This document shows positions 24,673 to 62,755 of a stretch of DNA of 64,000 nucleotides, piece by piece. Numbering within the stretch: position 1 is the first letter of the stretch; each line of letters begins with the position of its first letter. Both the position numbers and the translations under genes were made by a program. Origin of the DNA: Hyphomicrobium sp. (GTDB taxonomy: Bacteria > Pseudomonadota > Alphaproteobacteria > Rhizobiales > Hyphomicrobiaceae); NCBI RefSeq assembly GCF_019753045.1, contig NZ_JAIELN010000014.1:124001-188000 (forward strand), in the 5' to 3' direction. A model generated the notes under the pieces. That model was not told the origin of the DNA. It worked only from the letters and a program-made list of their open reading frames with translations, and made no database searches.

Positions 24673-24689
24673 GTCTAGCAGGACTTAAC
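24673..24689. promoter_or_regulatory. Dispersed phage operator, copy 1
   Basis: GTCTAG-CAGGA-CTTAAC, flanked by AA and TTT. It includes the TAA stop of the gene to its right and stands before the excisionase/integrase genes, so it probably links integration and excision control to the phage switch. Confidence 0.7.
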
Positions 24690-25089
24690 TTTTGGATCTA
24701 GCCTCAACCGCAGCTTGTCCCTCGGGCGTATGCTTCAGGACCCGGTTCCAGCGGCTGACGACGGCATTTTTCGTGAACGGCTGGTGAAAGCGGCGGCGCA
24801 GGTTCTTGGCGATGCGGGAGCCAGCCATCCGGCCATAGTTGCGGATGACGTAGGCGTCGGCCTCGGGGCTCCAGGTCAGCCGGGAGGTGCCGCCGTAAAG
24901 GCGCTTGTGCGCGGCCTTGAGGGCGGCGGCGACCGTTTGGCGTTCCCAGTAGAGCAGGCGGTTTTCGCTGCCGTCATCGTAGCTGAGGACAACGACGACG
25001 CGGGCCTTGGCGATGTGATCGAGCTTGAGCGGCCGGCCTTGGCCGTAGCGGCGGCTATCGAAAAAGGAAACCTTTTCATGCCGACCCAT
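24685..25089 (-). CDS. Phage protein with SANT/GcrA-like helix-turn-helix
   Basis: 134 residues. The C-terminal half, WSPEADAYVIRNYGRM then GSRIAKNLRRRFHQ and KNAVVSRWNRVL, fits the three-helix SANT/GcrA-type DNA-binding fold with a W at each end. The N-terminal half is a small beta domain. Its stop codon is inside operator copy 1. A strong terminator isolates it from the porin gene upstream, so it needs its own promoter in 25,152-25,392. Confidence 0.6.
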   Translation of the reverse strand: MGRHEKVSFFDSRRYGQGRPLKLDHIAKARVVVVLSYDDGSENRLLYWERQTVAAALKAAHKRLYGGTSRLTWSPEADAYVIRNYGRMAGSRIAKNLRRRFHQPFTKNAVVSRWNRVLKHTPEGQAAVEARSKS

Positions 25090-25108
25090 GTCGTCCTCGA
25101 AGCTTCAG

Positions 25109-25151
25109 AAAAAAGCCCGCCCGAGCTTCCTGACCGGTGGCTCGGGCGGGC
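25109..25151 (-). terminator. Strong intrinsic terminator after the porin unit
   Basis: A perfect 12-bp stem (GCCCGCCCGAGC / GCTCGGGCGGGC, 13-nt loop) followed on the minus strand by six T. It ends leftward transcription from the porin gene. Confidence 0.88.
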
Positions 25152-25392
25152 AAATCAAGACCCCTAAAGAACAGGTCATCTTGCGGGTCCTGAATTTCGA
25201 GCCTTCAGGTGCTAGGGAGCGTCCGTCTGTTGCTCGAAATGGAAAAGTGGGGCTACTGACCTTTGACCCGCCCCGAGGCCATTCTTTCCTGTGTCAGCTC
25301 AGTTTCGAGGGATCGGACGGTTCCCCTCTCTTGCACTCGTCACCCTCCACGTCGCGCGCCGCTTCATCGGATGCCGTCCCGTGCCCAAGCTC
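25152..25392. other. Gap between the porin gene and its terminator
   Basis: About 240 bp; it probably carries the promoter of the SANT-like gene to the left. No operator copy is visible here. Confidence 0.35.
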
Positions 25393-26664
25393 TTAGAACT
25401 GGATCTTCAGGCCGCCCATGAAGAAGTCGGCATTCGATCCAGCAATGTCGTAGCGGCGATAGTCGACGTAGAGATCGGCCGCTGCTCCATCGAGATGCTG
25501 GACGGCAGCGAAGCCCCAATATTTGAGACCAAGGTCGATGTTGCCGAAATCGCTGTCGGCGTATTCGGCAAAGACCGTGGTGGCGCCAACCGGCAACCAC
25601 TGCTCTTCCGCACCCGCCTGCACCGTCCAGGCCGTGATGTCGCCGATGGCGTCACCGGTGACGCCCCCGAGATCGAGCTTGCCGGCGGCGCCGTTGACGA
25701 AGAGGCCGGAGGCAACGTGCTTGATCGAGGCCGAACCCGAGAGGATCTTGGGATCAACGTACTGCGTGCCGGAGAAGGACACCGAGCCGAGGTTGCCGAA
25801 CGGCGTCAGGGCGATGCCGTTGCGATAACCGATGCCAGCGAGGGCCTGGAAGCCGTTGAATTCGCCCTTCCAGCGCAGTGCGACGTCCCAGATGTCGCCG
25901 GTCGACCGATACTCAAGGCCGCCGGCAGCATAGGACGCTGACAGAACGGCGCCGAACATCGTGGGCGAGTCGTAGCGGACGAGGTTGGCGCGGCCGCCGT
26001 CGAAGATGTCGAGGGCGTCAGCGAAGTCGCCGCCGACGAGCGGCCTGAGGCTCAGCATGCGGGCCGCGACTTGCGTATTGGCGACAGAGAGTTCGGCGAC
26101 GCCGTCGGTCGCTTGTCCGGCGAGACCAACGGTGACCTTACCGAATTGATCGCTGTCGACGTAGCCATACGAACGGCGTGTGTAGACGCCGTTGCCCGTC
26201 CCATAGGCGAACGGCGAGTTGAGCTCATCGCCCATGGCGATCTCGAGCACGTATCCGGCCTTAAGATGCGGCATGACGACGGCTTCGCCCTTGACGCCGA
26301 TAAGCGTCTCGGCATTGGAGTTCTGTCCGACCGCCCAATTGCCGGAAAAGCCATCACCGGAAATATGCATGATGGCTTCATCGACGACGCCGAAAACCGT
26401 CAGCGAGATTTTACGGTTGCCCTTGCGCGCCGCCGTGGCTTCGAGTTCGGCTACGCGCTCTTCGAGATCGGCGCAGCAATCGCTACCGACGCCTTTGTCG
26501 GCAGCAAGGGCCTTGCTGGGTCCGATGACGGAGCCGCCATCGAAGATAAACGCGGCGGCCGCGAGGCCGGCAATAATGACGGCACGGCGGAAACCACCGG
26601 TGCCTTCGTTAAAGCTTCTGAGACTTCCGTGTCGCCCAGTGGGCGAGCCAAGCGTGCCTTCCAT
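25393..26664 (-). CDS. Outer-membrane porin carried by the prophage
   Basis: 423 residues from the ATG at 26664, which follows AAGGAAG. A long signal peptide (FRRAVIIAGLAAAAFIF to ALAADK), a short coiled-coil CADLEERVAELEATAA, then a 16-strand-like barrel ending in Phe (GGLKIQF). The family is the rhizobial general porin (Porin_2). It forms a diffusion channel in the outer membrane. It stands alone between operator copy 2 and a strong terminator, so it is a separately controlled cargo gene. Likely roles: receptor masking or altered uptake in the lysogen. Confidence 0.85.
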   Translation of the reverse strand: MEGTLGSPTGRHGSLRSFNEGTGGFRRAVIIAGLAAAAFIFDGGSVIGPSKALAADKGVGSDCCADLEERVAELEATAARKGNRKISLTVFGVVDEAIMHISGDGFSGNWAVGQNSNAETLIGVKGEAVVMPHLKAGYVLEIAMGDELNSPFAYGTGNGVYTRRSYGYVDSDQFGKVTVGLAGQATDGVAELSVANTQVAARMLSLRPLVGGDFADALDIFDGGRANLVRYDSPTMFGAVLSASYAAGGLEYRSTGDIWDVALRWKGEFNGFQALAGIGYRNGIALTPFGNLGSVSFSGTQYVDPKILSGSASIKHVASGLFVNGAAGKLDLGGVTGDAIGDITAWTVQAGAEEQWLPVGATTVFAEYADSDFGNIDLGLKYWGFAAVQHLDGAAADLYVDYRRYDIAGSNADFFMGGLKIQF

Positions 26665-26851
26665 GAGGGCTTCCTTTGCGTTTCGTTTTTGAGGGCAGAG
26701 GACAAATACGCTTACGCAACAAGGCCTTCTCTGGAAGGCGATACGCACCGCACCGGAATTTTAGCGGCCGATCCGGGGCTCTCTGGGCCCCACGGTGACT
26801 TTCGTCAGCGTCGTGATAAATACGACCGCCGAAAACGAACGCAAGCAATAA

Positions 26852-26868
26852 GTCTAGGCGTGCTTGAC
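26852..26868. promoter_or_regulatory. Dispersed phage operator, copy 2
   Basis: GTCTAG-GCGTG-CTTGAC, flanked by AA and TTT; about 190 bp upstream of the porin start and after the stop of the previous gene. It suggests the porin is under phage repressor control. Confidence 0.75.
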
Positions 26869-26917
26869 TTTCCACACACGTTCGTTGCCGTTCCGTCACA
26901 ATTTTAGCCGCTCGGCG

Positions 26918-30155: not shown

Positions 30156-30427
30156 GCCGCCTCCGTCGCCATCTTCGGCGCAATGGTGACCTCGCCAAAG
30201 AGCAGTCCCGGGAAACTTCCGACATTGTACCGAGCTTCACAGGTCTCGTTGGAACAGAGCACGTTGATCGTCGCTCCGCCTTCTGGCCCAGCAAGCAGCT
30301 CGGCGTCACAGAACAGGCATTTGCCTGTCTCTTGGATCTGGCGCACGTATGTCTCGTCGAGCAGTCCGACGATTGGTGGCGGCCGTTGCGGCTTGCGATT
30401 GAACGGCCAAAAGCGAAACAAGGTCAT
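30152..30427 (-). CDS. Small zinc-ribbon-like phage protein
   Basis: 91 residues from the ATG at 30427, which overlaps the stop of the AAA+ gene. CLFCDAE and CSNETCEARYN give a four-Cys ribbon. Possibly a DNA- or protein-binding adaptor of the ATPase; no family recognised. Confidence 0.55.
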   Translation of the reverse strand: MTLFRFWPFNRKPQRPPPIVGLLDETYVRQIQETGKCLFCDAELLAGPEGGATINVLCSNETCEARYNVGSFPGLLFGEVTIAPKMATEAA

Positions 30428-31416
30428 GCAGCCTCCTCTTTCGGGTAGCGGTTCGGCGGCCACTTCATCGTCGACAGATTGGAAATGTTGATGGCGGCCT
30501 TGCTGTCGTTGATCCAGAGCGCCGGCCGGTCCATTTCTGGCGGCGGCTCGATCGCGTCCTTGACGGTTCGAAAGGCGAAAACCGGGTCGGCGGCGGCGCG
30601 TGACTTGCCGTCGGAAAGGACGATCGTCCGCTTCATGCCTTCCATCAGCTGACGTAGCAGCGACGGTGACGCCCCGGCGGTCAGCTCGGTCAGCGTTTCG
30701 ACCTCGCTATCGGCAAGATCGAACGGGTAGGCGTAGCGCTTGATGATTGCGAAGCGCTCGTTTTCGCTGGGCAGATCGATATTGATCTGCAGCGAAAACC
30801 GCCGCCACAACGCGCTGTCGATGGCAGCCTTGCGATTGGTGGCGCCAAACAGCACACCATGGAAACGCTCGACCCGGCGCAACAACACGTTGAGCGAGGC
30901 GGCGCGCTCCTGATCGGCGCCCGAGCCTTCGGTGCGCTTCGAGCCGAGGCTGTCGATCTCATCCATCAACACCACGACTTGCGCGACGCCGTTTTCATCG
31001 ATGCAGTCGTCGAGGGCGTCGAACAACCGGCCGATGTTTTTGCCGGTCGCGCCGAGATACATATCGATGATGCTCTCGCTCTTCACCGCCACGAGCGGCA
31101 GCCCGAGACGCGCCGCAAAGTGATGCGCAAACGTCGTTTTGCCGGTGCCCGGGGGGCCGTAGAGGAGGGCGGTGTTACGCGGCTTGAGACCAACGTCCGC
31201 CAGCTTGTCGCTGTTGCGGATCTCGATCAGCCAGTGATGGAGCGCGGCGCGCGCTCCCGGCGCCAGGATCGGCTCCTCGCAGTCTTCCGGCTCATGGATG
31301 AAGGCATAGTCGCGTAGCACCGCCATCGCCGTCTGCAATTTGTCGTCGCGGCGCTTTCGAGGTTCGGCGCCCGAGAGCTTGCGCGCTTGGCCAAGCAGAC
31401 CGTTATTTCTGGACAT
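30424..31416 (-). CDS. AAA+ ATPase
   Basis: 330 residues from the ATG at 31416. Walker A GPPGTGKTTFAHHFA, Walker B VVVLMDEIDSLG, and an arginine-containing SALWRRFSLQINIDLPS box of the type found in FtsH/CDC48-like AAA proteins. No protease domain is present. Likely a remodelling ATPase acting on protein or DNA-protein complexes. It overlaps by 14 bp the small membrane gene upstream and is coupled to the zinc-ribbon gene downstream. Confidence 0.85.
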   Translation of the reverse strand: MSRNNGLLGQARKLSGAEPRKRRDDKLQTAMAVLRDYAFIHEPEDCEEPILAPGARAALHHWLIEIRNSDKLADVGLKPRNTALLYGPPGTGKTTFAHHFAARLGLPLVAVKSESIIDMYLGATGKNIGRLFDALDDCIDENGVAQVVVLMDEIDSLGSKRTEGSGADQERAASLNVLLRRVERFHGVLFGATNRKAAIDSALWRRFSLQINIDLPSENERFAIIKRYAYPFDLADSEVETLTELTAGASPSLLRQLMEGMKRTIVLSDGKSRAAADPVFAFRTVKDAIEPPPEMDRPALWINDSKAAINISNLSTMKWPPNRYPKEEAA

Positions 31417-31676: not shown

Positions 31677-32447
31677 TTATGGATGCGCCTCTGGGCCACC
31701 TTCATCTTCCGGCGGCGGCATGAAATCGGGCTGGTGGACGCCATCCGAATTTTCGTCCTCGTCCTTCGGCTTCTTGACCTTGTCGTCCTTGCGGCGCAGG
31801 AACCACGGCACCTCCATGCCGTCCTCGGAACCCGCTTCCGACATCCAGCCCTCTTCCCAGGAGGCACGCTCCTTGGACGCCGGCGGATAGGTGTTCTCGG
31901 TGATCTTCTTGCCGGCACGCTGATCGGCGCGGCCTTTTTCGAAGGCGGCCTTGAGATCGTCTGGCAAAGGACCTTTCGGAACATCATCAATGACGTCCTC
32001 GAGGCTGTCATCTTCGGGCGGCATCGGCGCGCCACCCTTCATCGGCTTTTTCTTCGGCGACGCCGGCGATCGTGTTTTCGACTGCTTGAGCTGCTCCTTC
32101 TCTTCGTCGAGCTCCTCCATCATCTTCTTGATGGCGGCGTTGCCGAGCGGCGTGCCCCCGAGGTCGCCGATGCGGGCCAGATAGAGATCGATCTTGGCGG
32201 CGTAGTCTTCGCGTTCCTCCGGCGTCATCTTGCGGAGCTTAATGACGGCACGGACGATCTTCGGCTCGTAGCCGGCAGCCGTCAGCTCCTGGTAGATGGA
32301 GGTCTTGAACTTGGCGAGATCGGCCTGCTCTTCTTCGACCTTCTCGATGCGCTGAATGTAGGACTTGAGGTGAGCAGCGGCCTGGGCGCCCGGGTCCTTG
32401 CTTTCGAGTTCGTCCGGCTTGCTATTGAAGCCACCCGCACCGTCCAT
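31677..32447 (-). CDS. GapR (DUF2312)-RMF-like fusion protein
   Basis: 256 residues; the ATG at 32447 follows GGGGGAG. Residues 27-95 match GapR/DUF2312 (LKSYIQRIEKVEEEQADLA, then VIKLRKMTPEERED and LYLARIG). GapR binds overtwisted AT-rich DNA ahead of replication and transcription in alphaproteobacteria. A Lys/Pro-rich linker follows, and residues 166-205 carry the ribosome-modulation-factor pattern AFEKGRADQRAGK, NTY, SWEEGW. The tail is acidic. First gene behind a double operator (32,531-32,573). The fusion partner assignment is by pattern and needs a profile search. Confidence 0.72.
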   Translation of the reverse strand: MDGAGGFNSKPDELESKDPGAQAAAHLKSYIQRIEKVEEEQADLAKFKTSIYQELTAAGYEPKIVRAVIKLRKMTPEEREDYAAKIDLYLARIGDLGGTPLGNAAIKKMMEELDEEKEQLKQSKTRSPASPKKKPMKGGAPMPPEDDSLEDVIDDVPKGPLPDDLKAAFEKGRADQRAGKKITENTYPPASKERASWEEGWMSEAGSEDGMEVPWFLRRKDDKVKKPKDEDENSDGVHQPDFMPPPEDEGGPEAHP

Positions 32448-32530
32448 TACTCCCCCAAAGGTCCCGGCCTGAAACACGGCTCAGGGACAGCTGACGCGCA
32501 CGCGGCCGCCCGACTGAGGAACGGCCACGT

Positions 32531-32547
32531 GTTAAGTACGGCTTAAC
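32531..32547. promoter_or_regulatory. Dispersed phage operator, copy 3a
   Basis: GTTAAG-TACGG-CTTAAC, a perfect dyad. It is centred 26 bp from copy 3b and lies upstream of the GapR-like gene. Confidence 0.7.
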
Positions 32548-32556
32548 TTTCGAATG

Positions 32557-32573
32557 GTCAAGCAAGGCTAGAC
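32557..32573. promoter_or_regulatory. Dispersed phage operator, copy 3b
   Basis: GTCAAG-CAAGG-CTAGAC. On the minus strand its TTGACC could act as a -35 box 17 bp before TACTTA for the GapR-like gene, so binding here would block that promoter. Confidence 0.75.
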
Positions 32574-32575
32574 TT

Positions 32576-33775
32576 TTAATTCACAGCTGCGATGGCATGA
32601 GCCTGACCATTAGCTTCGTGGCTCTCGGTCGTCGTCTCGAGCAGCCGCTTGGCAACATCAGGGGCCGCTTCGATTTTGTTGAGCAACGTCGCGATGCGGC
32701 CCTCGAGATTGGCGGCGGCATCGAGCACGTTCTTGGTGAAGAACGACAAGTCCTTCTTGAGTGCGTGCAATTCGCGGACGATGTCGCGGCGCGACGAGTC
32801 GGCCACACTTGGTCCAAAAAATTCTTCGCGCCGCGCCGCGACTTCCTCGACCTTAACATTGAACCGCTTGGCGATCTTCTCGTCGCTCTCGCCAGCCGCG
32901 TAGCCGGTGTCGGCATCGATGTAGGCCTTGTCGATGGCGCGGTGGATCCTACGCCAGAGCGCCGTGTAGCGGAGCTCGGCCTGCCTCTCTTCTTCCAAGA
33001 AATCTTCGCGGGCGCGGTGTGCCTGCATGTTGATCGCCACGACTTTTTCGCTCAACGACTGACGGCCGACCGGAATACTGGTCAGCGGCATATGCGATGG
33101 CGTCATCGTCACCGGGGCCGCCATGTGCGGGGCGGGCAAAGCCTCGGTCGGCTGGCAAAGCTCCATCTTTTCAGGCGGCTTGCCGTCCATGATCGAAACG
33201 CACGATGGACAGACGTCTTCGGTTCGCGTCCGGCCGATAAGCCAGCCCTTGCCACGGAAATTCATCGTCAGGATCCAGAGCGACGGTGGCGTTGCCTTGC
33301 GCGAGTGGATGACGGCGCTCTCCGGGCAAAGGCAACATTGCACCCGGCTGACCGCCTGCAGCGCACCAGACTTTCCCGGCTCGATCGTCATCGGGAATGG
33401 TTCTGAATTTTTGATACTGCGGCGCTTCTTCTCCTCTACCGGCTCAGCGGCGGTTTCAGCGTCATCGAGGTCGAGGAGATTATCCTCCGAAGGCGTTGCG
33501 AGCACGGTCCTCAGTGGCGCCAGGGCCGCAAACGGATTGCCGTCGCTCTCGACCTTAACCATGTGTTCGCTGGTATGGCGAATACCGGCTTGCGTTTCGG
33601 CTCGGCGGATTTCGGATTTGAACCTTAATAGCTCTTCGGTGTGATTGGAGCCGGTCGTTTTAACGGGTCGCGCGATTTGTGGATGCGTGAACCGATAGCC
33701 GAATTTTTTGTCCGGTTCGCCCATCCAGCCCCGCTCCTCGGCGAAACGATGCATTTCCCGCAAGTTGCTATTCAT
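32576..33775 (-). CDS. Large unknown phage protein with Cys pairs
   Basis: 399 residues; the ATG at 33775 follows AGGAG. A central part has CCLCPESAVIHS and CPSCVSIMDG, a likely zinc site. The C-terminal half is helical, with DEKIAKRFNVKVEEVAARREEFFG (read here as EKIAKRFNVKVEEVAARR), a possible helix-turn-helix, and a last coiled-coil stretch. No family recognised. It starts inside the end of the small membrane gene upstream. Confidence 0.6.
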   Translation of the reverse strand: MNSNLREMHRFAEERGWMGEPDKKFGYRFTHPQIARPVKTTGSNHTEELLRFKSEIRRAETQAGIRHTSEHMVKVESDGNPFAALAPLRTVLATPSEDNLLDLDDAETAAEPVEEKKRRSIKNSEPFPMTIEPGKSGALQAVSRVQCCLCPESAVIHSRKATPPSLWILTMNFRGKGWLIGRTRTEDVCPSCVSIMDGKPPEKMELCQPTEALPAPHMAAPVTMTPSHMPLTSIPVGRQSLSEKVVAINMQAHRAREDFLEEERQAELRYTALWRRIHRAIDKAYIDADTGYAAGESDEKIAKRFNVKVEEVAARREEFFGPSVADSSRRDIVRELHALKKDLSFFTKNVLDAAANLEGRIATLLNKIEAAPDVAKRLLETTTESHEANGQAHAIAAVN

Positions 33776-34731: not shown

Positions 34732-35229
34732 TCACCCTCCGTTGAGGAAGTAGGTGGCGGGCCTAGGGCCGGCGGCCTGGTTGACGATGACGAGTTCGCC
34801 GCTCTCGACCAAGCTGTCGATGTAGCGGGCGGTGGCGCCGTGCGAAATGCCGATGACTTTGGCGAGTTTTTCGATGGAGATAACAACTTCGCCCTTCTTG
34901 TCGGCGAGCTGCATCATCTTCGACAGCATGCGCTGAATGGCTTTTTGCCGGGCCTTCTCGCGGTCCGTGAGGATGACCTTATCGTTGCCGGAACCATTGA
35001 CGGCACGAGGACTGGGAAGGATCGGAAAGCGATGCGATTTCGAAGGACCGTCGTCGATTTCAATAGCCGTGCCGTCGATCACGCCCTCTTTGGCATTTTC
35101 AAATTCGACGTAGCGGCGGGCTTTGTCGTGATCGCCGAACTCGGCGATGAATTCGTAGATCTTGCCGACGCCTGAGTATTCAAACACCCAGCTTTTATCG
35201 TCGTCCGTGGTGAGCCTGAAGAACGGCAT
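34732..35229 (-). CDS. Winged-helix phage regulator candidate
   Basis: 165 residues from the ATG at 35229. The C-terminal region KLAKVIGISHGATARYIDSL with the following ESGELVIVN is a good helix-turn-helix with wing, as in Lrp/ArsR-type proteins. The N-terminal 90 residues form an unknown domain (MPFFRLTTDDDKSWVFEYSG). It is the first gene behind operator copy 4 and may be a secondary regulator. Confidence 0.6.
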   Translation of the reverse strand: MPFFRLTTDDDKSWVFEYSGVGKIYEFIAEFGDHDKARRYVEFENAKEGVIDGTAIEIDDGPSKSHRFPILPSPRAVNGSGNDKVILTDREKARQKAIQRMLSKMMQLADKKGEVVISIEKLAKVIGISHGATARYIDSLVESGELVIVNQAAGPRPATYFLNGG

Positions 35230-35311
35230 GATGCCCTCACTGAAAAGAGGGCCCGCGAAAGGTGACTGGTACAAGAGTTCACGGGCACGAGACTTCTATT
35301 ACGCTTACAAA

Positions 35312-35328
35312 GTTAAGCTAACCGATAC
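35312..35328. promoter_or_regulatory. Dispersed phage operator, copy 4
   Basis: GTTAAG-CTAAC-CGATAC, flanked by AAA and TTT. A weaker match than the others (one half differs at two positions), upstream of the winged-helix gene. Confidence 0.55.
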
Positions 35329-35375
35329 TTTATCGAAATAGTGGGAGTGGCAACCCACAAATTGATGCTTATCCA

Positions 35376-37109: not shown

Positions 37110-37604
37110 CTAGAATGGAATTTCGGTATCGGCGTAATTGGTCGGCGGCGGCTCGGATGAAGGAAATGATTCCGATCCCGATCCCGATGGCGAAGACGTG
37201 CCGAAACGATTGGCGGTTTCTTCATCATACCCGCCCGCGTCGCGGTCATCACGACGGCCGTCGAGCAAAGTCAGTGTGCCATTAAAGCCCTGCAGAACGA
37301 TCTCGGTGGTGAACCTTTCGACATTGTTCTTGTCGCTGTATTTGCGCGTCGCGAGCTGGCCCTCGACGTAGAGCTTTGAGCCCTTCTTGACGTACTGGTC
37401 GACGATCTTGGCGATGTTCTCATTATAAACGACGACGCGATGCCACTCGGTTTTTTCCTTCTTCTCGCCCGTCGCCTTGTCGCGCCAGGACTCGCTCGTC
37501 GCCAGCGAAAACATGGCAATTTGCTTGCCCGATTGCGTCGTCTTGATATCGGGGTCCTTGCCGACGTTGCCGACGACGATCGCCTTGTTGACACTTCCCG
37601 CCAT
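37110..37604 (-). CDS. ssb: Single-stranded DNA-binding protein
   Basis: 164 residues from the ATG at 37604. The OB fold begins NKAIVVGNVGKDPDIKTTQS and contains WHRVVVYNENIAKIVDQYVK and GSKLYVEGQLATRKY. A disordered Gly/Ser-rich linker leads to the acidic tip DTEIPF used to recruit replication and repair partners. It coats single-stranded phage DNA, and works with RecT and the exonuclease encoded further upstream in the block. Confidence 0.93.
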   Translation of the reverse strand: MAGSVNKAIVVGNVGKDPDIKTTQSGKQIAMFSLATSESWRDKATGEKKEKTEWHRVVVYNENIAKIVDQYVKKGSKLYVEGQLATRKYSDKNNVERFTTEIVLQGFNGTLTLLDGRRDDRDAGGYDEETANRFGTSSPSGSGSESFPSSEPPPTNYADTEIPF

Positions 37605-38084: not shown

Positions 38085-38593
38085 AGGCCGATATCTCCCA
38101 TGCCGCCGACGCGGCGCTCGAACTTCGGCGCCATCTCCGCGCCTTCCGATTTGCCGGTGCATTCGTGTACCGAGACCAGATCCGTCTCGGTACGCTGAAG
38201 CACTTCGTCGGCGAAGACCCAGATTTTGCGCGGCACCTTGAGGTCGCCGGTCAAGAACATTTTCCCCGCCTGCGTGATCTTCCAGGCCTGCTTCGTGCGG
38301 CCCTTGCCGACACTGACCTCCACTTTTTCAGCAAGGCTCCAGTGAGCGAGTCGCGGGTAATCACGCTGCTTGGCGACGCGATCGGGAAAATCCTTCGGGA
38401 AAACCGGCCCATGATCGCGCATGTAGCGGAGAGCATCGACCATAATGGCATTGATCGAACGCTCCGTACGCTGAACGACACGGTCGCAGCACGGACACAT
38501 GATCGGCTGATCGGTAGCGAGCGCCAGCTGGATCTCGCGGCGGGCGAGGCCGACGCCGCGCCTGGCTTCTTCTGAGGTCTCAGGCGCTTCCAT
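38081..38593 (-). CDS. Phage protein with CPCC site and winged-helix-like part
   Basis: 170 residues from the ATG at 38593. Has IMCPCCDRVVQRTERS, then a helical-and-wing part (INAIMVDALRYMRDHGPVF with KITQAGKMFL) that resembles a small winged helix. No family recognised. Overlaps the upstream gene by 14 bases. Confidence 0.55.
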   Translation of the reverse strand: MEAPETSEEARRGVGLARREIQLALATDQPIMCPCCDRVVQRTERSINAIMVDALRYMRDHGPVFPKDFPDRVAKQRDYPRLAHWSLAEKVEVSVGKGRTKQAWKITQAGKMFLTGDLKVPRKIWVFADEVLQRTETDLVSVHECTGKSEGAEMAPKFERRVGGMGDIGL

Positions 38594-39014
38594 CGGCGGC
38601 TCCATTGAGGGTCGCCGCATTGGCATCCGTCGTCGTCGTGAAGTTAACGGACATGGCGACTTCGGAGAGTGTGATTGTATTGTTCGGCGGCAGGTTGCTC
38701 GCACCGCTGATGTCGTCCACGACAATCGGCGGTGCCACGTCCCCGGCCTTGTCGCCGTTTTTCAGAAACTCATAGAAGGCACGCGCCGCCTCGAGGACCT
38801 TTTCGTAGCCGAAGTGACCGCCGCAGGTTCGAACGGCATCGCCCAAGGCGATCTTGCGCAGCTCGCGCAATTCCATGACGTCATCCTCGATCCCGAGGGG
38901 ATCGAGCTCCGCCTCGAGCTTCAGGCGAGCCGCCCAAGTGGGGTCCTGCTTCTCGATCGCCCACTGCTGCGTGAGGTTGCGCGTCGAGGTCCGGTACGGG
39001 TTCTTGAAGGCCAT
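38580..39014 (-). CDS. Unknown phage protein, head of an early operon
   Basis: 144 residues. An N-terminal basic helix region (RTSTRNLTQQWAIEKQD) and a Thr/Asn-rich C-terminal part. No family recognised. It is the first gene behind operator copy 5. Confidence 0.5.
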   Translation of the reverse strand: MAFKNPYRTSTRNLTQQWAIEKQDPTWAARLKLEAELDPLGIEDDVMELRELRKIALGDAVRTCGGHFGYEKVLEAARAFYEFLKNGDKAGDVAPPIVVDDISGASNLPPNNTITLSEVAMSVNFTTTTDANAATLNGAADGSA

Positions 39015-39052
39015 GGTCGTGTTCCTTTGTGCGAGTGTCGCCCAACCCAGAA

Positions 39053-39069
39053 GTCAAGGCAGGCTAGAC
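39053..39069. promoter_or_regulatory. Dispersed phage operator, copy 5
   Basis: GTCAAG-GCAGG-CTAGAC. The TAG stop of the macrodomain gene is inside it, and the gene block leading to ssb and the Omp25-like gene follows. Confidence 0.75.
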
Positions 39070-39585
39070 TACTTTGGCGTCCTTGTTCCGCGAAGCCGGT
39101 TTCGGCAGCGGTTTCTTCACTTTTTCGTCCGTGTGCGGCGGATAAAGCTCAACTTCAACCTCGGGCGCGATCGTGCCGAAGGCTTTTTCGATCACCTTTT
39201 TGACGACCGGCCAAGCCAGCCCACCCTTGCCGCAACCAAGAGCTGGAATGGCGATCGACTTGATTTTCAGTTGCTTGCAGCGCTCAGCCAGGATCTCTGC
39301 GGCGGCAACGATCCACTCTATCTTCGACGGCCGCGACCAGTGATCCTTGGTGGCGACATGAAAGATGGTGCGCGGGGTGCGCCGGCCGTCGGCATGCGAC
39401 AGCACGCGGCCGGGCTCCAGCGTGTGTTCCTGGCAGGCGTTCTTGTAGCCGATGCAGCGGTCGGGATAGCGCAACCAGAATTCCTTGGCGAGGCCCGCGC
39501 CCATCACGCCGAAACAGTTGACGGGATTGCAGTAGGCCTCCGCCTTGGACTCGAACATGTCGTCTTTGACGATCGTAACCGGCAT
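39064..39585 (-). CDS. DarG/Poa1-type macrodomain protein
   Basis: 173 residues. A macrodomain covering about 1-150: YCNPVNCFGVMGAGLAKEF, later IFHVATKDHWSRPSKIEW, and the ADP-ribose loop IPALGCGKGGLAW. This subclass (DarG, TARG1-like) removes ADP-ribose from DNA or glutamates. No DarT toxin gene is seen beside it. In a phage it could undo host ADP-ribosylation defence. A basic C-terminal tail (KKPLPKPASRNKD) is extra. Its stop is part of operator copy 5. Confidence 0.82.
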   Translation of the reverse strand: MPVTIVKDDMFESKAEAYCNPVNCFGVMGAGLAKEFWLRYPDRCIGYKNACQEHTLEPGRVLSHADGRRTPRTIFHVATKDHWSRPSKIEWIVAAAEILAERCKQLKIKSIAIPALGCGKGGLAWPVVKKVIEKAFGTIAPEVEVELYPPHTDEKVKKPLPKPASRNKDAKVV

Positions 39586-40336: not shown

Positions 40337-41029
40337 TCACGCAGCTTTCGTACGCCGCCGCTCCAATTCGAAGCGGGCGGTGTAGAGGGCATCGGGGTCC
40401 ATGTTCTTCTGCTTCAGGACCCACTGCAGGTAGTCGGCGGGCACCTGCTCGATTGGGGTGCCCTGGTGCATGCCGAAGAAAAAGCGCGGCAGATAAAGTG
40501 GTGCGTTCGTCCACTCGACGAGCGTCGCAAAGTTCGCGACCTTGAGGAGCTCGGTCATGATGGCGCCGGTGACGAGAATGTCGGAATGAGCGCGGTGCGG
40601 CACGATCTTGGCGCGGTCGACGCCGAGCGGATTGATGAGGCCCTTGGCGTAGCGAATGACTTCGTTCTTATAGGACGGCAGATCGCGCCAGGCGCGGACG
40701 GCGCAGCGGTAGGTGCAGACCCAGACCTTCTTGCCGATCAGCGGCTCGAGGAAGTCGCGCTCCATTTCGAAATTGTGGGCGACGTAGGCGTCGGCGCCGT
40801 CATAATCGCCGATGACCTCGCGCATCTTGGGCGATTGCACCACGTCGGCATCAATGATGCCATGCACGGCCGAGCTCTCTGGCGGAATGGGCCGGCCCGG
40901 ATTGACCAGCGTCGACTGGGCGTTGACGAAGGTGCCGCCGGCCTTCAGATCGATACTGGCGATCTCGATAATGGCGTCGTTGACGGGGTCGAGGCCGGTG
41001 GTTTCGAGATCAATGACTTTGAGGACCAT
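40337..41029 (-). CDS. ExoX-like DEDD exonuclease
   Basis: 230 residues. DnaQ-like 3'-5' exonuclease core: Exo I VIDLETTGLDP, Exo II AYVAHNFEMERDF, Exo III with RAHSDILVTG, giving the DEDDh metal site. The C-terminus (PRFFFGMHQGTPIEQVPADYLQW split as FFFGMHQG and VPADYLQWVL) matches the small tail domain of exodeoxyribonuclease X. It trims single-stranded DNA ends in replication or recombination. First gene behind operator copy 6. Confidence 0.85.
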   Translation of the reverse strand: MVLKVIDLETTGLDPVNDAIIEIASIDLKAGGTFVNAQSTLVNPGRPIPPESSAVHGIIDADVVQSPKMREVIGDYDGADAYVAHNFEMERDFLEPLIGKKVWVCTYRCAVRAWRDLPSYKNEVIRYAKGLINPLGVDRAKIVPHRAHSDILVTGAIMTELLKVANFATLVEWTNAPLYLPRFFFGMHQGTPIEQVPADYLQWVLKQKNMDPDALYTARFELERRRTKAA

Positions 41030-41111
41030 GCAGGCTCGCAGCTCGTTTTCGATTTTCCACTCAGACCAGCACGCTACGAGAGGTCTGGTCGTATCGGTTT
41101 CGCACTCAAAA

Positions 41112-41128
41112 GTCTAGCGCTGCTTGAC
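41112..41128. promoter_or_regulatory. Dispersed phage operator, copy 6
   Basis: GTCTAG-CGCTG-CTTGAC, flanked by AAAA and TTTTT. It fills the gap between the HNH gene stop and the ExoX-like gene. Confidence 0.75.
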
Positions 41129-41131
41129 TTT

Positions 41132-45462: not shown

Positions 45463-45639
45463 TCACCTCAACCCCGCGAAGACGTCGTCCATCAGCTTCA
45501 CCGCCTTGAGGACCTTCTTCTTGGCCTTCGCCAGCTTGCGCTTGTCGGCAGCGCCGTAGGTCTCAAGCTCGGCGATGCGCCGGAGCATCGGTTGGGCGTC
45601 GTCTTGAAAGATGGTTTCGGGACCTTCGACCTTCGTCAT
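45463..45639 (-). CDS. Small basic phage protein
   Basis: 58 residues from the ATG at 45639, overlapping the exonuclease stop by four bases. Mainly one Lys-rich helix (KRKLAKAKKKVLKAVKLM). No family recognised. Confidence 0.5.
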   Translation of the reverse strand: MTKVEGPETIFQDDAQPMLRRIAELETYGAADKRKLAKAKKKVLKAVKLMDDVFAGLR

Positions 45640-46811: not shown

Positions 46812-46903
46812 GAGATGACCTCATTAACACTCTGCAACGGGACTCAATCGGCCTTCGGCTGTTGAGCTATTGTCAGAGTATCATCACATTTAACCTCCAT
46901 AAG

Positions 46904-46920
46904 GTCAATGAAGGCTAGAC
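46904..46920. promoter_or_regulatory. Dispersed phage operator, copy 7
   Basis: GTCAAT-GAAGG-CTAGAC, flanked by TTT on one side. On the minus strand its TTGACC end could be the -35 box of the recombination operon, about 95 bp before the exonuclease start. Confidence 0.72.
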
Positions 46921-46933
46921 TTTATGCGCAACA

Positions 46934-46988: not shown

Positions 46989-47723
46989 TTAGCGGCGGAT
47001 CAGGCGCACATGCTCCACGAGAGTGCCAAGAAAAACAAACTCGGTGTCGGCGGCAATTTCAATATCGTCGTAACCCGGATTGTCGGCGCTCAGCTTGAAG
47101 GGTGCAGTCAGTTTTTTGGTGAGGCCGGAAGCTTTGTAGCGGCGGAAAAAGAGGTCGCCGGATTTGGGTACGCCAATCAAAAAACAATCGCCAGGGTCGG
47201 GCTGGACGGCCGGGTCGATCGTAATAACGTCGCCCTGCATGATCGGGTGTCTGCCGCCGTCCATCGCATTGTCGAAAATCTCAACCGAAATGGCCTTATT
47301 CGAACAGTCGGCATAGCACTGCCGCCGTTCTTGCACTTCTTCCGGCGCGACGTCCCCGATGGCAAATTTGATGATATCGTCGTAGCGGATCTTGGGAACG
47401 AAGCGGCCGCGCGTGACCTTCAATTTGCCAACGGAGCCGCCCTCTTTGGAGCCCCTGTTGCCCGTTAGAATGTAATCGATGGAGCAGCCATAGATCACAG
47501 CCAGTCGCGACATGTCAGTAATAGACAGTTCGGCACGCGCGAGTTCGTAGTGACAGATGCTCTGCTTGGACAGCCCAAGCACCCGTGCAACCTGTTGCTG
47601 GGTCATGTCGGCTTGTTTGCGGGCCTCCTTGAGGCGCTTGCCGATCGCAATTAACTCGTTCTGCATGCTGTTTTTTCGGGGGTCCCTGAGACGCTTGCCG
47701 ATCGCCGTGATGTTATTTTTCAT
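46989..47723 (-). CDS. cI: CI-like phage repressor (S24 fold, cleavage residues lost)
   Basis: 244 residues from the ATG at 47723 (SD TGGAAG); an ATG at 47666 is also possible. The N-terminus is a duplicated 19-residue unit, followed by an XRE helix-turn-helix (about 22-85: MTQQQVARVLGLSKQSICHYE). The C-terminal half is the LexA/CI S24 fold (IMQGDVITIDPAVQPDPGDC). The catalytic Ser in xNSM is Ala153 (DNAMDG) and the Lys is Arg194/195 (LFFRRYK), so self-cleavage is unlikely. It keeps lysogeny by binding the dispersed operators. Confidence 0.85.
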   Translation of the reverse strand: MKNNITAIGKRLRDPRKNSMQNELIAIGKRLKEARKQADMTQQQVARVLGLSKQSICHYELARAELSITDMSRLAVIYGCSIDYILTGNRGSKEGGSVGKLKVTRGRFVPKIRYDDIIKFAIGDVAPEEVQERRQCYADCSNKAISVEIFDNAMDGGRHPIMQGDVITIDPAVQPDPGDCFLIGVPKSGDLFFRRYKASGLTKKLTAPFKLSADNPGYDDIEIAADTEFVFLGTLVEHVRLIRR

Positions 47724-47761
47724 CCGGCTTCCATTACAATGAGGGGATAAGGGGTCAAGCA

Positions 47762-47778
47762 GTCAAGTTCGACTAGAC
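47762..47778. promoter_or_regulatory. Dispersed phage operator, copy 8 (switch)
   Basis: GTCAAG-TTCGA-CTAGAC in the gap between the divergent repressor and Cro-like genes. A single half-site GTCAAG starts at 47754 and a CTTAAC half-site at 47808. This places the dyad family at the lysis-lysogeny switch. Confidence 0.78.
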
Positions 47779-47786
47779 TATAGCGA

Positions 47787-47815
47787 TTGACAAAAAATAT
47801 CATGGTGCTTAACTT
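47787..47815 (+). promoter_or_regulatory. Rightward early promoter candidate (PR)
   Basis: TTGACA, 17 bp, then TAACTT. The -35 box is perfect, the -10 box is weak and overlaps the CTTAAC half-site at 47808. It would drive the Cro-like gene 40 bp downstream. Confidence 0.5.
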
Positions 47816-47854
47816 CCGTTGGCGTAAGTTGCTTGGTCAAAATAGAGAACCTGT

Positions 47855-48241
47855 ATGTCAGCTTTTTTCGACATTGCCCCAAAGTCCGGAATGGGACGAA
47901 CGTCGAGCAACGACTTGGTTAAGGAAGAGACAAAGCTATCGCCTCCCAAGTCGCGGAAATTGAACCTGAAGGGCGGTCCTCGCCGTGACGCGCATTCCCG
48001 CGACCTCCTCCGTGATGAGGCGCTTCTGCGGGCCTTTCGCGCCGTTGGCGGCCAATCGGCCCTGGCCCTGCTTCTCAACCGCAGCAAGCAGGCCACCTGG
48101 CACTGGCTGCGCGTGCCATCGCAATACGTGCTGAAAGTCGAAGAACTCACGGGCATCTCTCGCTACGAGCTGCGACCGGATCTCTACCCCCGCGAAGAGG
48201 TTCGCAAGGGCGCCGGCAAGGAGGTTTCACGGGCGCATTAG
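47855..48241 (+). CDS. Cro/YdaS-like DNA-binding protein
   Basis: 128 residues. The C-terminal half, ALLRAFRAVGGQSALALLLN, then SKQATWHWLRVPSQYVLKVE and GISRYELRPDLYP, is the YdaS/Cro-type helix-turn-helix with its typical RPDIYP-like end. The N-terminal 50 residues are extra and basic. It lies divergent from the repressor and is the natural counter-regulator. The start at 47855 has only a weak ribosome site. Confidence 0.75.
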   Translation: MSAFFDIAPKSGMGRTSSNDLVKEETKLSPPKSRKLNLKGGPRRDAHSRDLLRDEALLRAFRAVGGQSALALLLNRSKQATWHWLRVPSQYVLKVEELTGISRYELRPDLYPREEVRKGAGKEVSRAH

Positions 48242-50862: not shown

Positions 50863-51777
50863 CCCGCCGGCGCTTTTCTGTTTGCGCCGAGCGGGCACGT
50901 GCGTTGCGTTGGTTCGCGTCTGTTCGCGTTGGAGTGAGTGAGCGTTTCACCAGGATGATTGAATGACAGTGAAAACTCGCAAATCGCATGAGCCCGGCAG
51001 CCGTTCACGGCCGCCGTAGGAAGAGGGAGAAACTTCCACATGCTCACACGGCCTCGGAAGCCTGGAGCAACCGGCGACATCCCCAATGTCTGAGCCGCGT
51101 ACAGTCTTCCGAGGATCTGACTTCCGACCCAAGCACTAGCGTAAGGCGTCCGCCAGTCTCCCGTTCCGCAACCATCAGGGCTCCCTGGATTTGATCCACA
51201 CCCTCCGGTCTCCGGTTCGAGTTGCATCAGGAGAGGCAATTGGGACACGGGTCGACCCGATTGCGGCGGAACGATCCTAGAACTCCTGGCAAGCCCATTG
51301 CGAAGCGATGCGAGGGCATGTCAGTTTCGGCGAGTTAAATTTGCTGAAACCTTCTTGGCCGCTTGGCCACATCGTTCCAGCAGCCTTAATCGACGGTGCG
51401 ATGGCGTAGCTCGGGCCCCGGCTACGCAAGCGACGAAAGGGGCTCCTTCCTTCCAGTAAACGTGCGTAAGGTTCGCGCTTTTGCCTGTGTTTTCGGGCAA
51501 AAGTTTAACCCGGTCACTCTTGCGAGCAACCGGGCCAAGTCGCGAATTTAGGAGAACCCCCTAGACGCTGGAAATCCAGTCCAACGGAAACAGCATCACG
51601 GGAACGCACCATGAGTATCAGCTTGCTTGACCTCTCGCAATGGCGAGACGCGCAAATCGAGTCGGTGCTCAAGCGGGCTGGGGATGAACCCGGCTGAATT
51701 TCTCCAGTGGCGTGCAGCGTGTGCGTGACGGTGACGGCCAGGCATCGGGCCCGGCTTGAGCAGATGGGGAAATTCTC
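50863..51777. other. 915-bp gap in the rightward early block
   Basis: No large gene fits. It contains tandem GTTCGCGT words at about 50,912-50,928, a strong hairpin at 51,404-51,427 (GCGTAGC / GCTACGC), two smaller hairpins at 51,481-51,534, and one 28-codon frame at 51,611-51,697 (MSISLLDLSQWRDAQIES). The size is remarkable in a block where genes overlap. It may hold a promoter, an RNA or a replication site. Confidence 0.4.
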
Positions 51778-58007: not shown

Positions 58008-58453
58008 GGTTTCGCACACGCAAGCTCACCAAGGCGCCGAAGGTGCCGCTGCCAAAGCTCACCGAGGCGCAGATCCAGAAGACGCTGCTCGATCATTTGC
58101 ACCATCGCGCCAAGCCGGGTGTCGTCTACTGGCATACGCCGAACGGCGGCGTTCGCGATCGCATCACCGGCCGCCAATTGAAGGATCAGGGCGTCGTCTC
58201 CGGCGTTCCTGATCTTCTCCTCTTCTTTCGAGGCCAGCTCTATGGCCTCGAGCTCAAGACCGAGAAGGGGCGCTTGCAGCCGACGCAAGTAAAATTCCAG
58301 GCCGCTCTTGCAAAACAGGGTGCGATCCTCGCCACCGCCTACGGTCTCGATGAGGCACTGAAGATCCTGTTGGGCTGGGGCGTTCTGGTCACGGCGGCGA
58401 TGTTTGAAGCGTTGGCAGCAAAAAACTTCGAGTCGGAAGTCAAGCAGGGCTAG
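58004..58453 (+). CDS. VRR-NUC domain nuclease
   Basis: 149 residues. VRR-NUC core: LTEAQIQKTLLDHL, VYWHTPNGGVRDRITGRQLK, then GVVSGVPDLLLFFRGQLYGL and ELKTEKGRLQPTQVKFQAAL with the metal-binding Asp/Glu/Lys set. Such stand-alone nucleases act on Holliday-like or flap structures. Its TAG stop is inside operator copy 9. Confidence 0.85.
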   Translation: MRFRTRKLTKAPKVPLPKLTEAQIQKTLLDHLHHRAKPGVVYWHTPNGGVRDRITGRQLKDQGVVSGVPDLLLFFRGQLYGLELKTEKGRLQPTQVKFQAALAKQGAILATAYGLDEALKILLGWGVLVTAAMFEALAAKNFESEVKQG

Positions 58454-58455
58454 AC
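58439..58455. promoter_or_regulatory. Dispersed phage operator, copy 9
   Basis: GTCAAG-CAGGG-CTAGAC, flanked by TTTAG. It overlaps the end of the VRR-NUC gene and stands 31 bp before the next rightward gene. Confidence 0.72.
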
Positions 58456-58485
58456 TTTAGTCGCGAACAAACTTAGCGACGAGGG

Positions 58486-61267: not shown

Positions 61268-61746
61268 GTCTCTGACCCTTCGTCATTGAGTTTGTCGATC
61301 GCGGCGAACGCCTCTTCGGCGGCATCCTTGATTTCATCTATGCGCTCGGTGATCTCGCTTTCCTCAAAGCCGCAGAACGTCATCTCGTAGAGAATGTTGG
61401 CGATGATCTCGGCGTCGCTGAGCTCCAGCGGCGGCTCGACATGGACATCCATCATCAACCACTCCGCCCACGGCTCGAACTCGATCGCATAGTGCAGCGC
61501 GTCGCCGGGACGGACGCCATAGACATCGACTGTCGGCAGCGGCGGCTCATCGAGCGAGAAGGTACGGGCGAGGCGGCAGCCCATCACCGTCGGCTTCGGT
61601 GTCATCGCTCTCAGTCGCGCGATCGTCTCGCGGTACTCCTCGCCATCCTGCTTATCGTAGAGCTCGCCCAGAGCCGTAACGATCGCCTCGGCATCGACGC
61701 CGGCGAGGATCGAGGCAACCGTGCGCACAGTGATCGCTTCAACCAT
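61264..61746 (-). CDS. Unknown phage protein
   Basis: 160 residues, acidic; PTVDVYGVRPGDALHYAIEF and a helical C-terminus (EITERIDEIKDAAEEAFAAI). No family recognised. Overlaps both neighbours. Confidence 0.55.
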   Translation of the reverse strand: MVEAITVRTVASILAGVDAEAIVTALGELYDKQDGEEYRETIARLRAMTPKPTVMGCRLARTFSLDEPPLPTVDVYGVRPGDALHYAIEFEPWAEWLMMDVHVEPPLELSDAEIIANILYEMTFCGFEESEITERIDEIKDAAEEAFAAIDKLNDEGSET

Positions 61747-62128
61747 GGACTGGACTGCCCTTGATGCCGAGGATTTCAGCCGCCTTTTCCATCGCCCGCG
61801 CCGTTGGCAAATGCGAGCGGATCGGCGCTATGCCCTGATTGAGCAGGGCGGCCGAGACGACGTTCGCCACCCATTCGATCTCGAGTTCGGCGCAGCGGAG
61901 CGCCCAATAATTTCCGTCCCGGCTCTTGCGCGCCTCGTGCGTCTGGTAAGTGGCGGCATCGAGCAACTTGCCGAGGTCGTCCGGATTGTTGGCCTTGAGG
62001 CAGCGCTCGAAACCATCGAGCGCGCCCTTGAGCTTCAGGGCGTCCTTTGGCGCCTTGTAGTCCCGGCGCGCCGCTGTCATGCCGTCGGCGCAGATGCGGG
62101 CGACAAAGGCGTGGAAGTTCATCGTCAT
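61739..62128 (-). CDS. Unknown phage protein
   Basis: 129 residues, helical; DALKLKGALDGFERCLKANN and WVANVVSAALLNQGI. No family recognised. Confidence 0.5.
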   Translation of the reverse strand: MTMNFHAFVARICADGMTAARRDYKAPKDALKLKGALDGFERCLKANNPDDLGKLLDAATYQTHEARKSRDGNYWALRCAELEIEWVANVVSAALLNQGIAPIRSHLPTARAMEKAAEILGIKGSPVHG

Positions 62129-62337
62129 GTCATCTCTCCGTCGATCTCAACGAGATCGTGCTCGCCGTCCGGCTCCGCGCCGCCAGCCTCAATGCGATTG
62201 TCGGCATTGACGTCGGCGGCGAATTCGAGCCGCAAATAGCCGAGCCGTTCATTGAGGAGTTTTTCCGCCTCGTCGGAGGTCGCCGCTTGCACGGTGAAGT
62301 GCGCGAAAAATTTGACATCGAATGTGAAGGCGCTCAT
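62125..62337 (-). CDS. Small unknown phage protein
   Basis: 70 residues. A beta-alpha pattern (FTFDVKFFAHFTVQAATSDE, AEKLLNERLGYL) and an acidic end. No family recognised. Confidence 0.5.
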   Translation of the reverse strand: MSAFTFDVKFFAHFTVQAATSDEAEKLLNERLGYLRLEFAADVNADNRIEAGGAEPDGEHDLVEIDGEMT

Positions 62338-62657
62338 GCGACGGCCTTTCTGCGGTTGTCTACTTCAAGAAAGGCCAGCACCCGAACCTGCAGATCGAGA
62401 ATGCGGCGTTCGAGTTTCAGCGTCTCGAGGGGCGCCGGCGACAGCTGCTCAAGCCGTCTGATGAGAAGCTCGCTGTTGGCGACGGCATCGCGGCGGCTGA
62501 CGAGCACATCGGCGAACGGCTCGAGGAAGCAGTCGCGGTCGAGGTTGGGCAAGAGGCGCTCGAGCGACCGGCGGTGGTAGCCGCGCATCAGTTCGGCCGC
62601 CTCGCGCCTGAGGTCGTTGAGGGAAGTCTCACCCGTCTTGCCCGTCGATTTGCTCAT
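62334..62657 (-). CDS. Unknown helical phage protein
   Basis: 107 residues from the ATG at 62657 (MSKSTGKTGETSLNDL); starts at 62663 or 62681 are possible. Long helices with LKLERRILDLQVRVLAFLEV. First gene behind operator copy 10. No family recognised. Confidence 0.5.
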   Translation of the reverse strand: MSKSTGKTGETSLNDLRREAAELMRGYHRRSLERLLPNLDRDCFLEPFADVLVSRRDAVANSELLIRRLEQLSPAPLETLKLERRILDLQVRVLAFLEVDNRRKAVA

Positions 62658-62738
62658 CGCCATGGTCCTCATCGCTCTCAAACATCGAGATCGTACGCAA
62701 ACAATCGTATCACCATGGCAGGCGACGCAACATATAAA

Positions 62739-62755
62739 GTCTAGTTTCCCGAGAC
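62739..62755. promoter_or_regulatory. Dispersed phage operator, copy 10
   Basis: GTCTAG-TTTCC-CGAGAC with perfect ATAAA / TTTAT flanks, so the symmetry reaches 27 bp. It lies between two leftward genes, upstream of the second block. Confidence 0.72.

What the first reader, a model, noticed from the sequence alone, without database searches (positions are those of the whole stretch)
24673..62755. A 17-bp operator repeated at nine loci across 38 kb of prophage
Seen: dyads of the form GTCWAG-N5-CTTGAC (or the reverse) at 24673, 26852, 32531, 32557, 35312, 39053, 41112, 46904, 47762, 58439 and 62739. Ten are good matches and 35312 is weaker. Most carry AAA/TTT flanks. All lie at gene ends or in gaps, and each stands before a new gene block: excisionase/integrase, porin, GapR-like, winged-helix gene, ssb operon, ExoX, RecE/RecT operon, cI/cro, the gene at 58,486, and the gene at 62,657. 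Known: temperate phages such as L5 scatter repressor sites genome-wide, while lambda-like phages use two clustered operators. Inference: one repressor/Cro pair controls about ten promoters, an unusual decentralised switch.
Basis: partly seen in the sequence, partly recalled or inferred. Interest (0 to 1): 0.82.

Follow-up and report, generated by a model that had tools for sequence, protein, structure and literature searches.

The report
One repressor site repeated across prophage
A very large dormant virus in a bacterial chromosome carries the same short DNA switch in front of about thirty of its genes, so that one repressor protein probably keeps them all silent at once, a layout known from a few other viruses.

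Summary
The repeat is real and larger than reported. It is a 23-bp palindrome, AAAGTCWAG-N5-CTWGACTTT. All 11 listed places hold a copy (32,531 weakly); a strong one at 53,415 was missed. Genome-wide, up to 3 mismatches, 27 of 29 places lie in one prophage, 3.2% of the genome. Its ends share a 45-bp att core in a tRNA-Cys gene, and three relatives fetched have the empty site: at least 128 kb over two contigs, about 147 kb with a third. It holds 33 sites of score 16 or more, against 0 in 170 kb of host DNA. Of these, 26 lie within 135 bp of a predicted gene start, apparently over a -10 region. The halves do not co-vary, so a protein dimer on DNA is likelier than an RNA hairpin. In two unrelated viral contigs the site lies in or beside a gap between CI-like and Cro-like genes. 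The prophage's CI-like repressor lacks the cleavage dipeptide, serine and lysine, so self-cleavage is unlikely. Dispersed operators are known (P1, phiC31, L5, SPbeta); this is a new variant. Binding is untested.

The parts
23106..23150 (.). attL core, 45 bp identical to the 3' end of tRNA-Cys(gca) at G000:C4:53,454-53,498 (attR side); left end of the prophage
   Evidence: one core copy with both flanks meeting in G001, G016 and G014
23172..24389 (-). tyrosine integrase
   Evidence: Pfam Phage_integrase 4.9e-26, PHROGs integrase 3.4e-56
24670..24692 (.). operator, score 31.7; about 280 bp before the integrase start; weak second copy at 24,623-24,645 (14.3)
26849..26871 (.). operator, 28.7; before 25,393-26,664 (no family)
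32528..32550 (.). weak tandem operator, 11.5, 26 bp from the next
32554..32576 (.). operator, 29.3; before the GapR-like gene 31,677-32,447
   Evidence: GapR_DNA-bd 2e-17
35309..35331 (.). operator, 25.7; before 34,732-35,229 (weak matches to replication O-like / DnaD-like families, E about 3e-4, and to a winged helix under its cut-off)
39050..39072 (.). operator, 24.8; before 38,580-39,014 (no family), in the block that holds ssb (37,110-37,604)
41109..41131 (.). operator, 33.4; before the exonuclease (RNase_T) gene 40,337-41,029
46901..46923 (.). operator, 26.4; before the RecE/RecT block (45,636-46,724; 43,900-45,039)
46989..47723 (-). CI-like repressor, 244 aa: HTH_3 plus S24-like domain without the cleavage residues
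   Evidence: Pfam HTH_3 9.1e-13, Peptidase_S24 1.5e-6; PHROGs transcriptional repressor 2.9e-24; alignment
47759..47781 (.). operator, 21.1, in the gap between repressor and YdaS genes; weak second copy 47,794-47,816 (13.7)
47855..48241 (+). YdaS/Cro-like regulator, divergent from the repressor
   Evidence: Pfam YdaS_toxin 2.1e-13; PHROGs transcriptional repressor 1.4e-11
58436..58458 (.). operator, 31.7; 27 bp before the gene at 58,486 (no family)
62736..62758 (.). operator, 29.5; before the gene 62,334-62,657 (no family above cut-off)

Best explanation
The repeats are operators of one master repressor, dispersed over a giant (at least 128 kb, probably about 147 kb) integrated prophage of a tailed phage with a sheathed tail. 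Shown by sequence: 33 copies, prophage-specific, palindromic, mostly a short way upstream of predicted gene starts, with a -35-like signal 17 bp before a TANNNT that lies in the palindrome. Inferred: a dimer of the CI-like repressor (46,989-47,723) binds each palindrome, covers the -10 and spacer of each promoter and blocks RNA polymerase, silencing about 30 transcription units one by one, its own gene and the Cro-like gene included; the Cro/YdaS protein probably uses the same sites after induction. Because the repressor lacks the Ala-Gly dipeptide and the Ser and Lys of self-cleaving repressors, induction probably works through an antirepressor or a fall in repressor level.
For: 27 of 29 genome places (up to 3 mismatches) in the prophage; reversed-pattern control 3. 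Score 16 or more: 33 in 146,601 bp of prophage, 0 in 169,607 bp of host sample, 0.05 on average in 40 Markov shuffles; that matrix was built from 27 of these sites, but a matrix from ten window sites alone finds 18 sites outside the window and 0 in the host flanks scanned. One element: 45-bp att core on C8 and C4, empty site in 3 of 3 relatives fetched for it, and complementary genes (replication on C8, terminase on C32, portal, major head protein and sheath on C4). Placement: 26 of 33 within 135 bp and 19 of 33 within 60 bp of a predicted start; 26 of 92 tandem gaps of 25 bp or more and 3 of 11 divergent gaps hold a site, against 0 of 159 shorter tandem gaps and 0 of 12 convergent gaps. Promoter: mean -35 score 0.43 at 8 bp before the palindrome, other offsets outside the palindrome mean -1.30, sd 0.42, highest -0.39; TANNNT at +15 in 16 of 33 toward the gene, 6 of 33 away; best promoter score higher toward the gene, p 0.0015. 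In L162 the exact site and a second one lie between an HTH_3 gene and a cro-like gene; in L153 a 3-mismatch site lies between YdaS and HTH_3 genes. One full-length repressor relative in the genome, itself.
Against: No binding or expression data. Repressor relatives were not found closely enough to test co-evolution: 1 of 397 order genomes at E 1e-15 (this one), none in viral contigs or genome contigs, 11 phage records at low identity. Twelve of 14 contigs with the exact 23-mer do not support the model, and several look like terminators; in L153 the exact site is about 60 bp past the HTH_3 gene, not in the gap, and the starts used in L153 and L162 were chosen by me. Only 3 of 33 sites have TTG at -8, and the paired test there is modest (p 0.02). 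Seven of 33 sites are more than 135 bp from a predicted start. Orientation of each site was assigned by hand and gene starts come from my own caller. C32 is placed by content; no contig ends overlap.
Confidence: 0.83

Rival explanations
1. The sites belong to the Cro/YdaS-like protein or to another phage regulator such as an early activator, and the CI-like repressor acts at only a few of them.
For: YdaS is divergent from the repressor and a predicted regulator; neither protein's specificity is known; a 3-mismatch site lies next to a YdaS gene in L153.
Against: The palindrome lies over the likely -10 and spacer, which suits repression; in L162 the gap holds an HTH_3 gene and a short HTH_3 cro-like gene, no YdaS family gene at its cut-off.
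Confidence: 0.11
2. The repeats are RNA hairpins: intrinsic terminators or leader elements.
For: The palindrome could form a stem ending in UUU; perfect versions in viral records G819, G829 and G824 look like terminators.
Against: No sign of compensation: complementary pairs match the number expected for independent halves at nine of eleven positions within about one pair and fall below it at two (positions 6: 11 against 17.2; 10: 5 against 9.8); 0 of 12 convergent gaps hold a site.
Confidence: 0.02
3. A host regulon, for example SOS boxes, that happens to include phage genes.
For: Recombination genes are among the targets.
Against: 2 of 29 genome places are outside the prophage, both with 3 mismatches; 0 in 169,607 host bases at score 16; of 21 same-genus genomes one has one match and 20 have none at up to 2 mismatches.
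Confidence: 0.01
4. Stoperator-like sites that block elongation inside operons.
For: Dispersed and many; one lies inside a predicted gene at 53,415.
Against: Palindromic, not asymmetric; 0 of 159 short tandem gaps hold a site; promoter-like signals at the sites.
Confidence: 0.03

Closest known systems
Phage P1 C1 repressor and its dispersed operators
   Same: One repressor with 22 operators dispersed over a temperate genome, inactivated by a bound protein, Coi (passages of PMC8546580).
   Different: P1 operators are an asymmetric 17-bp sequence; here palindromic, 33 of them, with a divergent CI/Cro-type module and chromosomal integration.
Streptomyces phage phiC31 repressor
   Same: Repressor sites dispersed over the genome (18-30 in phiC31 and L5; passage of PMC4557955); inverted-repeat operators (recalled).
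   Different: phiC31 repressor is not in a divergent cI/cro pair and is made as three isoforms (same passage); much smaller genome (recalled).
Mycobacteriophage L5 / cluster A operators and stoperators
   Same: More than twenty dispersed sites for one immunity repressor (passages of PMC9283540).
   Different: Asymmetric 13-mers bound by a monomer, orientation tied to transcription, some proposed to halt elongation.
Bacillus SPbeta MrpR and SPBRE
   Same: A prophage with one master repressor on a repeated element in about ten promoter regions (passages of PMC10516654).
   Different: MrpR has a tyrosine-recombinase fold and the motif is 15 bp; here an HTH_3/S24-like repressor.
Lambda CI and P22 C2 switches
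   Same: Divergent repressor and Cro-type genes with operators between them (records); alignable domains.
   Different: Lambda and P22 operators lie in clusters beside the repressor gene; the cleavage residues are missing here.
Gifsy non-cleavable repressors with antirepressors
   Same: Repressor without the self-cleavage signature (passages of PMC3121763).
   Different: Gifsy repressors are small (136 aa in LT2); here the domain is kept without its catalytic residues, and no antirepressor was identified.

Membership tests
Dispersed-operator master repressor system (functional class: P1, phiC31, L5, SPbeta) | Many copies of one site, specific to the phage genome | tested here: met
   27 of 29 genome places in the prophage; 33 against 0 in the host sample
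Dispersed-operator master repressor system (functional class: P1, phiC31, L5, SPbeta) | Sites stand at promoters of many separate units | tested here: met
   by predicted genes and promoter-like signals only
Dispersed-operator master repressor system (functional class: P1, phiC31, L5, SPbeta) | The phage's own repressor binds the sites | not testable with these tools
   needs EMSA, footprint or ChAP-seq
Lambda-type CI/Cro switch | Divergent repressor and Cro-type genes with an operator between | tested here: met
Lambda-type CI/Cro switch | Operators confined to one or two clusters | tested here: not met
   33 sites over three contigs
Self-cleaving S24 (LexA/CI) repressors | Ala-Gly cleavage site and Ser/Lys dyad | tested here: not met
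   aligned with lambda CI, P22 C2 and a CobraSix repressor, the AG, GNSM/GDSM and FKK positions read DI, DNAM and FRR; that these are the residues of lambda and P22 is from PMC3121763 (passages) and recall
Cluster A stoperators | Asymmetric site oriented with transcription | tested here: not met
   palindrome
P1 C1 operators | Asymmetric 17-bp consensus | tested here: not met
   against the consensus quoted in PMC8546580
Intrinsic terminators | Stem kept by compensation, at transcript ends | tested here: not met
   no compensation, 0 of 12 convergent gaps; transcript ends not testable

The most novel reading that the evidence does not exclude
A giant prophage in which one non-cleavable CI-like repressor holds more than 30 promoters individually, with half-site variants (22 of 33 sites pair an AAG-type with a TAG/TC-type half) grading affinity, so that a slow fall of active repressor, set by an antirepressor, opens the promoters in a fixed order: lytic timing written into operator strength rather than into a cascade of antiterminators.
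Probability: 0.2. Interest if true: 0.7.

Novelty: new variant of a known kind. Interest (0 to 1): 0.5.

Why it matters
Dispersed repressor operators have been worked out in only a few phages, with unlike repressors. Here a classical divergent CI/Cro-type module seems to serve a whole giant genome through 33 palindromes, with a repressor that has lost the self-cleavage residues. It gives a natural set of operator variants to ask how large temperate phages keep dozens of promoters quiet and how they induce without RecA-driven cleavage. For genome mining it shows that a repeated palindrome can tie contigs of one prophage together: here the motif pointed to two contigs that the att cores then showed to be the ends of one element.

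Tried and rejected
Relatives of the phage: repressor, AAA protein, DnaB-like helicase, portal, major head protein gave distant hits or none. 1 of 397 order genomes (this one) had the repressor at E 1e-15 or the AAA protein at E 1e-30. The C32 terminase is 54% like that of prophages of about 50 kb, which left open whether C32 is another prophage; 93 loci (1.35 Mb) brought in by terminase, portal and head protein hold 2 places of score 16 or more (19.0 and 17.6, the latter in the nearest terminase relative, L036), so the operator set does not simply come with that terminase.

Exact 23-mer in viral contigs: 14 contigs; 2 used, 12 set aside as unrelated, several terminator-like.

I first thought CTTGAC in the palindrome was the -35 box; the profile puts the -35 upstream and the -10 inside. 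In one search an offset overlapping the palindrome (-3) scored higher (0.58) than -8 (0.43); one search compares offsets outside it only. LexA-type boxes (recalled consensus) as a hint to an antirepressor: 4 in the prophage, 3 in 43 kb of host, no use. Structure prediction of the repressor from one sequence failed (mean pLDDT 33). The excess of unlike halves (22 of 33, 15.8 expected, p 0.02; classes set by hand) is suggestive only.

Gene starts come from a simple coding-score caller that I wrote.
Full report
WHAT WAS CLAIMED. Dyads GTCWAG-N5-CTTGAC at eleven places between 24,673 and 62,739, read as operators of a prophage repressor.

OBSERVATION. The window scan gave 31 matches (both strands counted) at up to 2 mismatches against 6.1 expected; 0 of 100 shuffles reach it. 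The eleven listed places were read with flanks. Aligning 27 genome copies shows a 23-bp palindrome, AAAGTCWAG-N5-CTWGACTTT, with little information beyond it. This is the held-out test; later counts use a matrix built from 27 of the sites counted.

SPECIFICITY. At up to 3 mismatches the genome (4.52 Mb, 35 contigs) has 29 places: 20 on C8 between 148,670 and 216,009, 6 on C4 between 12,152 and 53,155, 1 on C32, and 2 elsewhere (C1, C13; 3 mismatches each); the reversed pattern gives 3. At up to 2 mismatches this genome has 18; of 99 relatives 3 have one each and 96 none; of 384 other genomes of the class 58 have a match, none more than 4. With the final matrix at 16 or more: 33 in the prophage (22 C8, 2 C32, 9 C4), 0 in 43,105 + 26,502 + 60,000 + 40,000 host bases, 0 in 50,500 bases of G003; 40 Markov shuffles of prophage size average 0.05, largest 1.

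THE ELEMENT. The window is C8:124,001-188,000. The integrase is at window 23,172-24,389. A 45-bp direct repeat links C8:147,106-147,150 and C4:53,454-53,498; the C4 copy is the 3' end of a tRNA-Cys(gca) gene. In the three relatives fetched for this, G001, G016 and G014, the C8 left flank and the C4 right flank meet at one core copy; in a fourth, G003, about 45 kb of other DNA sits at the same tRNA. So C8 from 147,106 to its end and C4:1-53,498 are the two ends of one prophage (127.9 kb held). C32 (18.7 kb) is assigned by content: it has the large terminase subunit, not seen among the C8 and C4 genes that I scanned (a part of them), and 2 strong sites; no contig ends overlap. C4 has portal, Mu-F-like and major head proteins, head closure, tail sheath, a weak tape-measure match and endolysin; C8 has RecE, RecT, ssb, DnaB-like helicase, primase, ParB-like and AAA proteins.

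PLACEMENT. Of 33 sites, 26 are within 135 bp of a predicted gene start and 19 within 60 bp; seven are farther, up to 468 bp (orientation assigned by hand from the neighbouring genes). By gap type: 26 of 92 tandem gaps of at least 25 bp, 0 of 159 shorter ones, 3 of 11 divergent, 0 of 12 convergent. Toward the gene, a -35-like score peaks 8 bp before the palindrome, which is 17 bp before a TANNNT inside it (16 of 33 toward the gene, 6 of 33 away); only 3 of 33 have TTG at that offset. A bound dimer would cover the -10 and the spacer. Close pairs lie 24-26 bp apart at C8:156,528/156,554, C4:53,131/53,155 and C4:9,332/9,356; in the first and third pair one member is under 16.

DNA SITE, NOT RNA. 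At eleven opposed positions the number of complementary pairs equals that for independent halves within about one pair, except at positions 6 and 10, where it is lower. I see no compensation.

WHICH PROTEIN. The gap between the CI-like gene and the YdaS gene holds a site (47,759) and a weak one (47,794). The genome has one full-length relative of the repressor, itself; three others are short HTH matches. A search of viral contigs for the exact 23-mer returned 14 contigs. Two have GC of 0.59 and 0.62: in G832 (L162) sites at 1,916 and 1,949 (the exact one) lie between an HTH_3 gene and a short cro-like HTH_3 gene; in G823 (L153) a 3-mismatch site at 845 lies between a YdaS/P22-Cro gene and an HTH_3 gene, and the exact site at 1,324 lies about 60 bp past the latter. 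Gene starts there were chosen by me among the methionines of the open frames. The other twelve contigs do not bear on it. That contigs picked by the site alone carry it in or near such a gap is the best indirect evidence that this operator type belongs to CI/Cro-like proteins.

INDUCTION. Aligned with lambda CI, P22 C2 and a related phage repressor, the protein keeps the C-terminal domain but reads DI for the dipeptide AG, DNAM for GNSM/GDSM and FRR for FKK. Self-cleavage is therefore unlikely; non-cleavable repressors released by antirepressors are known (PMC3121763, passages). No antirepressor was identified.

KNOWN OR NEW. P1 C1 has 22 dispersed operators (PMC8546580, passages); phiC31 and L5 have 18-30 sites (PMC4557955, passages); L5-type sites are asymmetric and monomer-bound (PMC9283540, passages); SPbeta MrpR binds SPBRE in about ten promoter regions (PMC10516654, passages). 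The principle is known. I did not see the combination of a divergent CI/Cro-type module, a palindrome, 33 sites, a prophage of about 147 kb and a repressor without cleavage residues in the listings of the eight paper searches made here or the passages named; I read no paper whole.

LIMITS. No binding or expression data; own gene calls; one prophage without close relatives in what was searched, so no comparative footprint; C32 placed by content.

Noticed in passing
window 47,610-47,723: The repressor's N-terminus looks duplicated (AIGKRL twice within its first 31 residues); the true start may be the second methionine, residue 20.
   Followed up: no
G003:C1:2,591,100-2,636,300 (L144-L146): A same-genus genome carries about 45 kb of other DNA in the same tRNA-Cys gene, with a partial integrase relative (33%) at one end; no copy of this operator at score 14 or more.
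   Followed up: partly
IMG/VR records G829, G819, G824 (L159, L149, L154): Near-perfect palindromes AAAGTCAAGACSGTCTTGACTTT at 6, 5 and 1 places in records of 37-57 kb; probably terminators, but regular enough to look at.
   Followed up: partly
window 31,677-32,447: GapR-like DNA-binding domain at the N-terminus with a ribosome-modulation-factor match further on (7.6e-5, under its cut-off).
   Followed up: no
G000:C8:191,050-194,383 and window 30,424-31,416: Three AAA-type ATPase-like proteins of PHROGs families 3757 and 10440 in one prophage.
   Followed up: no
G000:C4:4,245-4,531: Three tRNA genes (Pro, Trp, Met) in a row a few kb from the portal gene.
   Followed up: no
window 50,863-51,777: A gap of 915 bp without a gene in my calls, before the DnaB-like helicase gene; a weak operator-like match at 51,612 (9.7).
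   Followed up: no
window 39,064-39,585: Macro-domain protein (6.2e-14) in the prophage.
   Followed up: no
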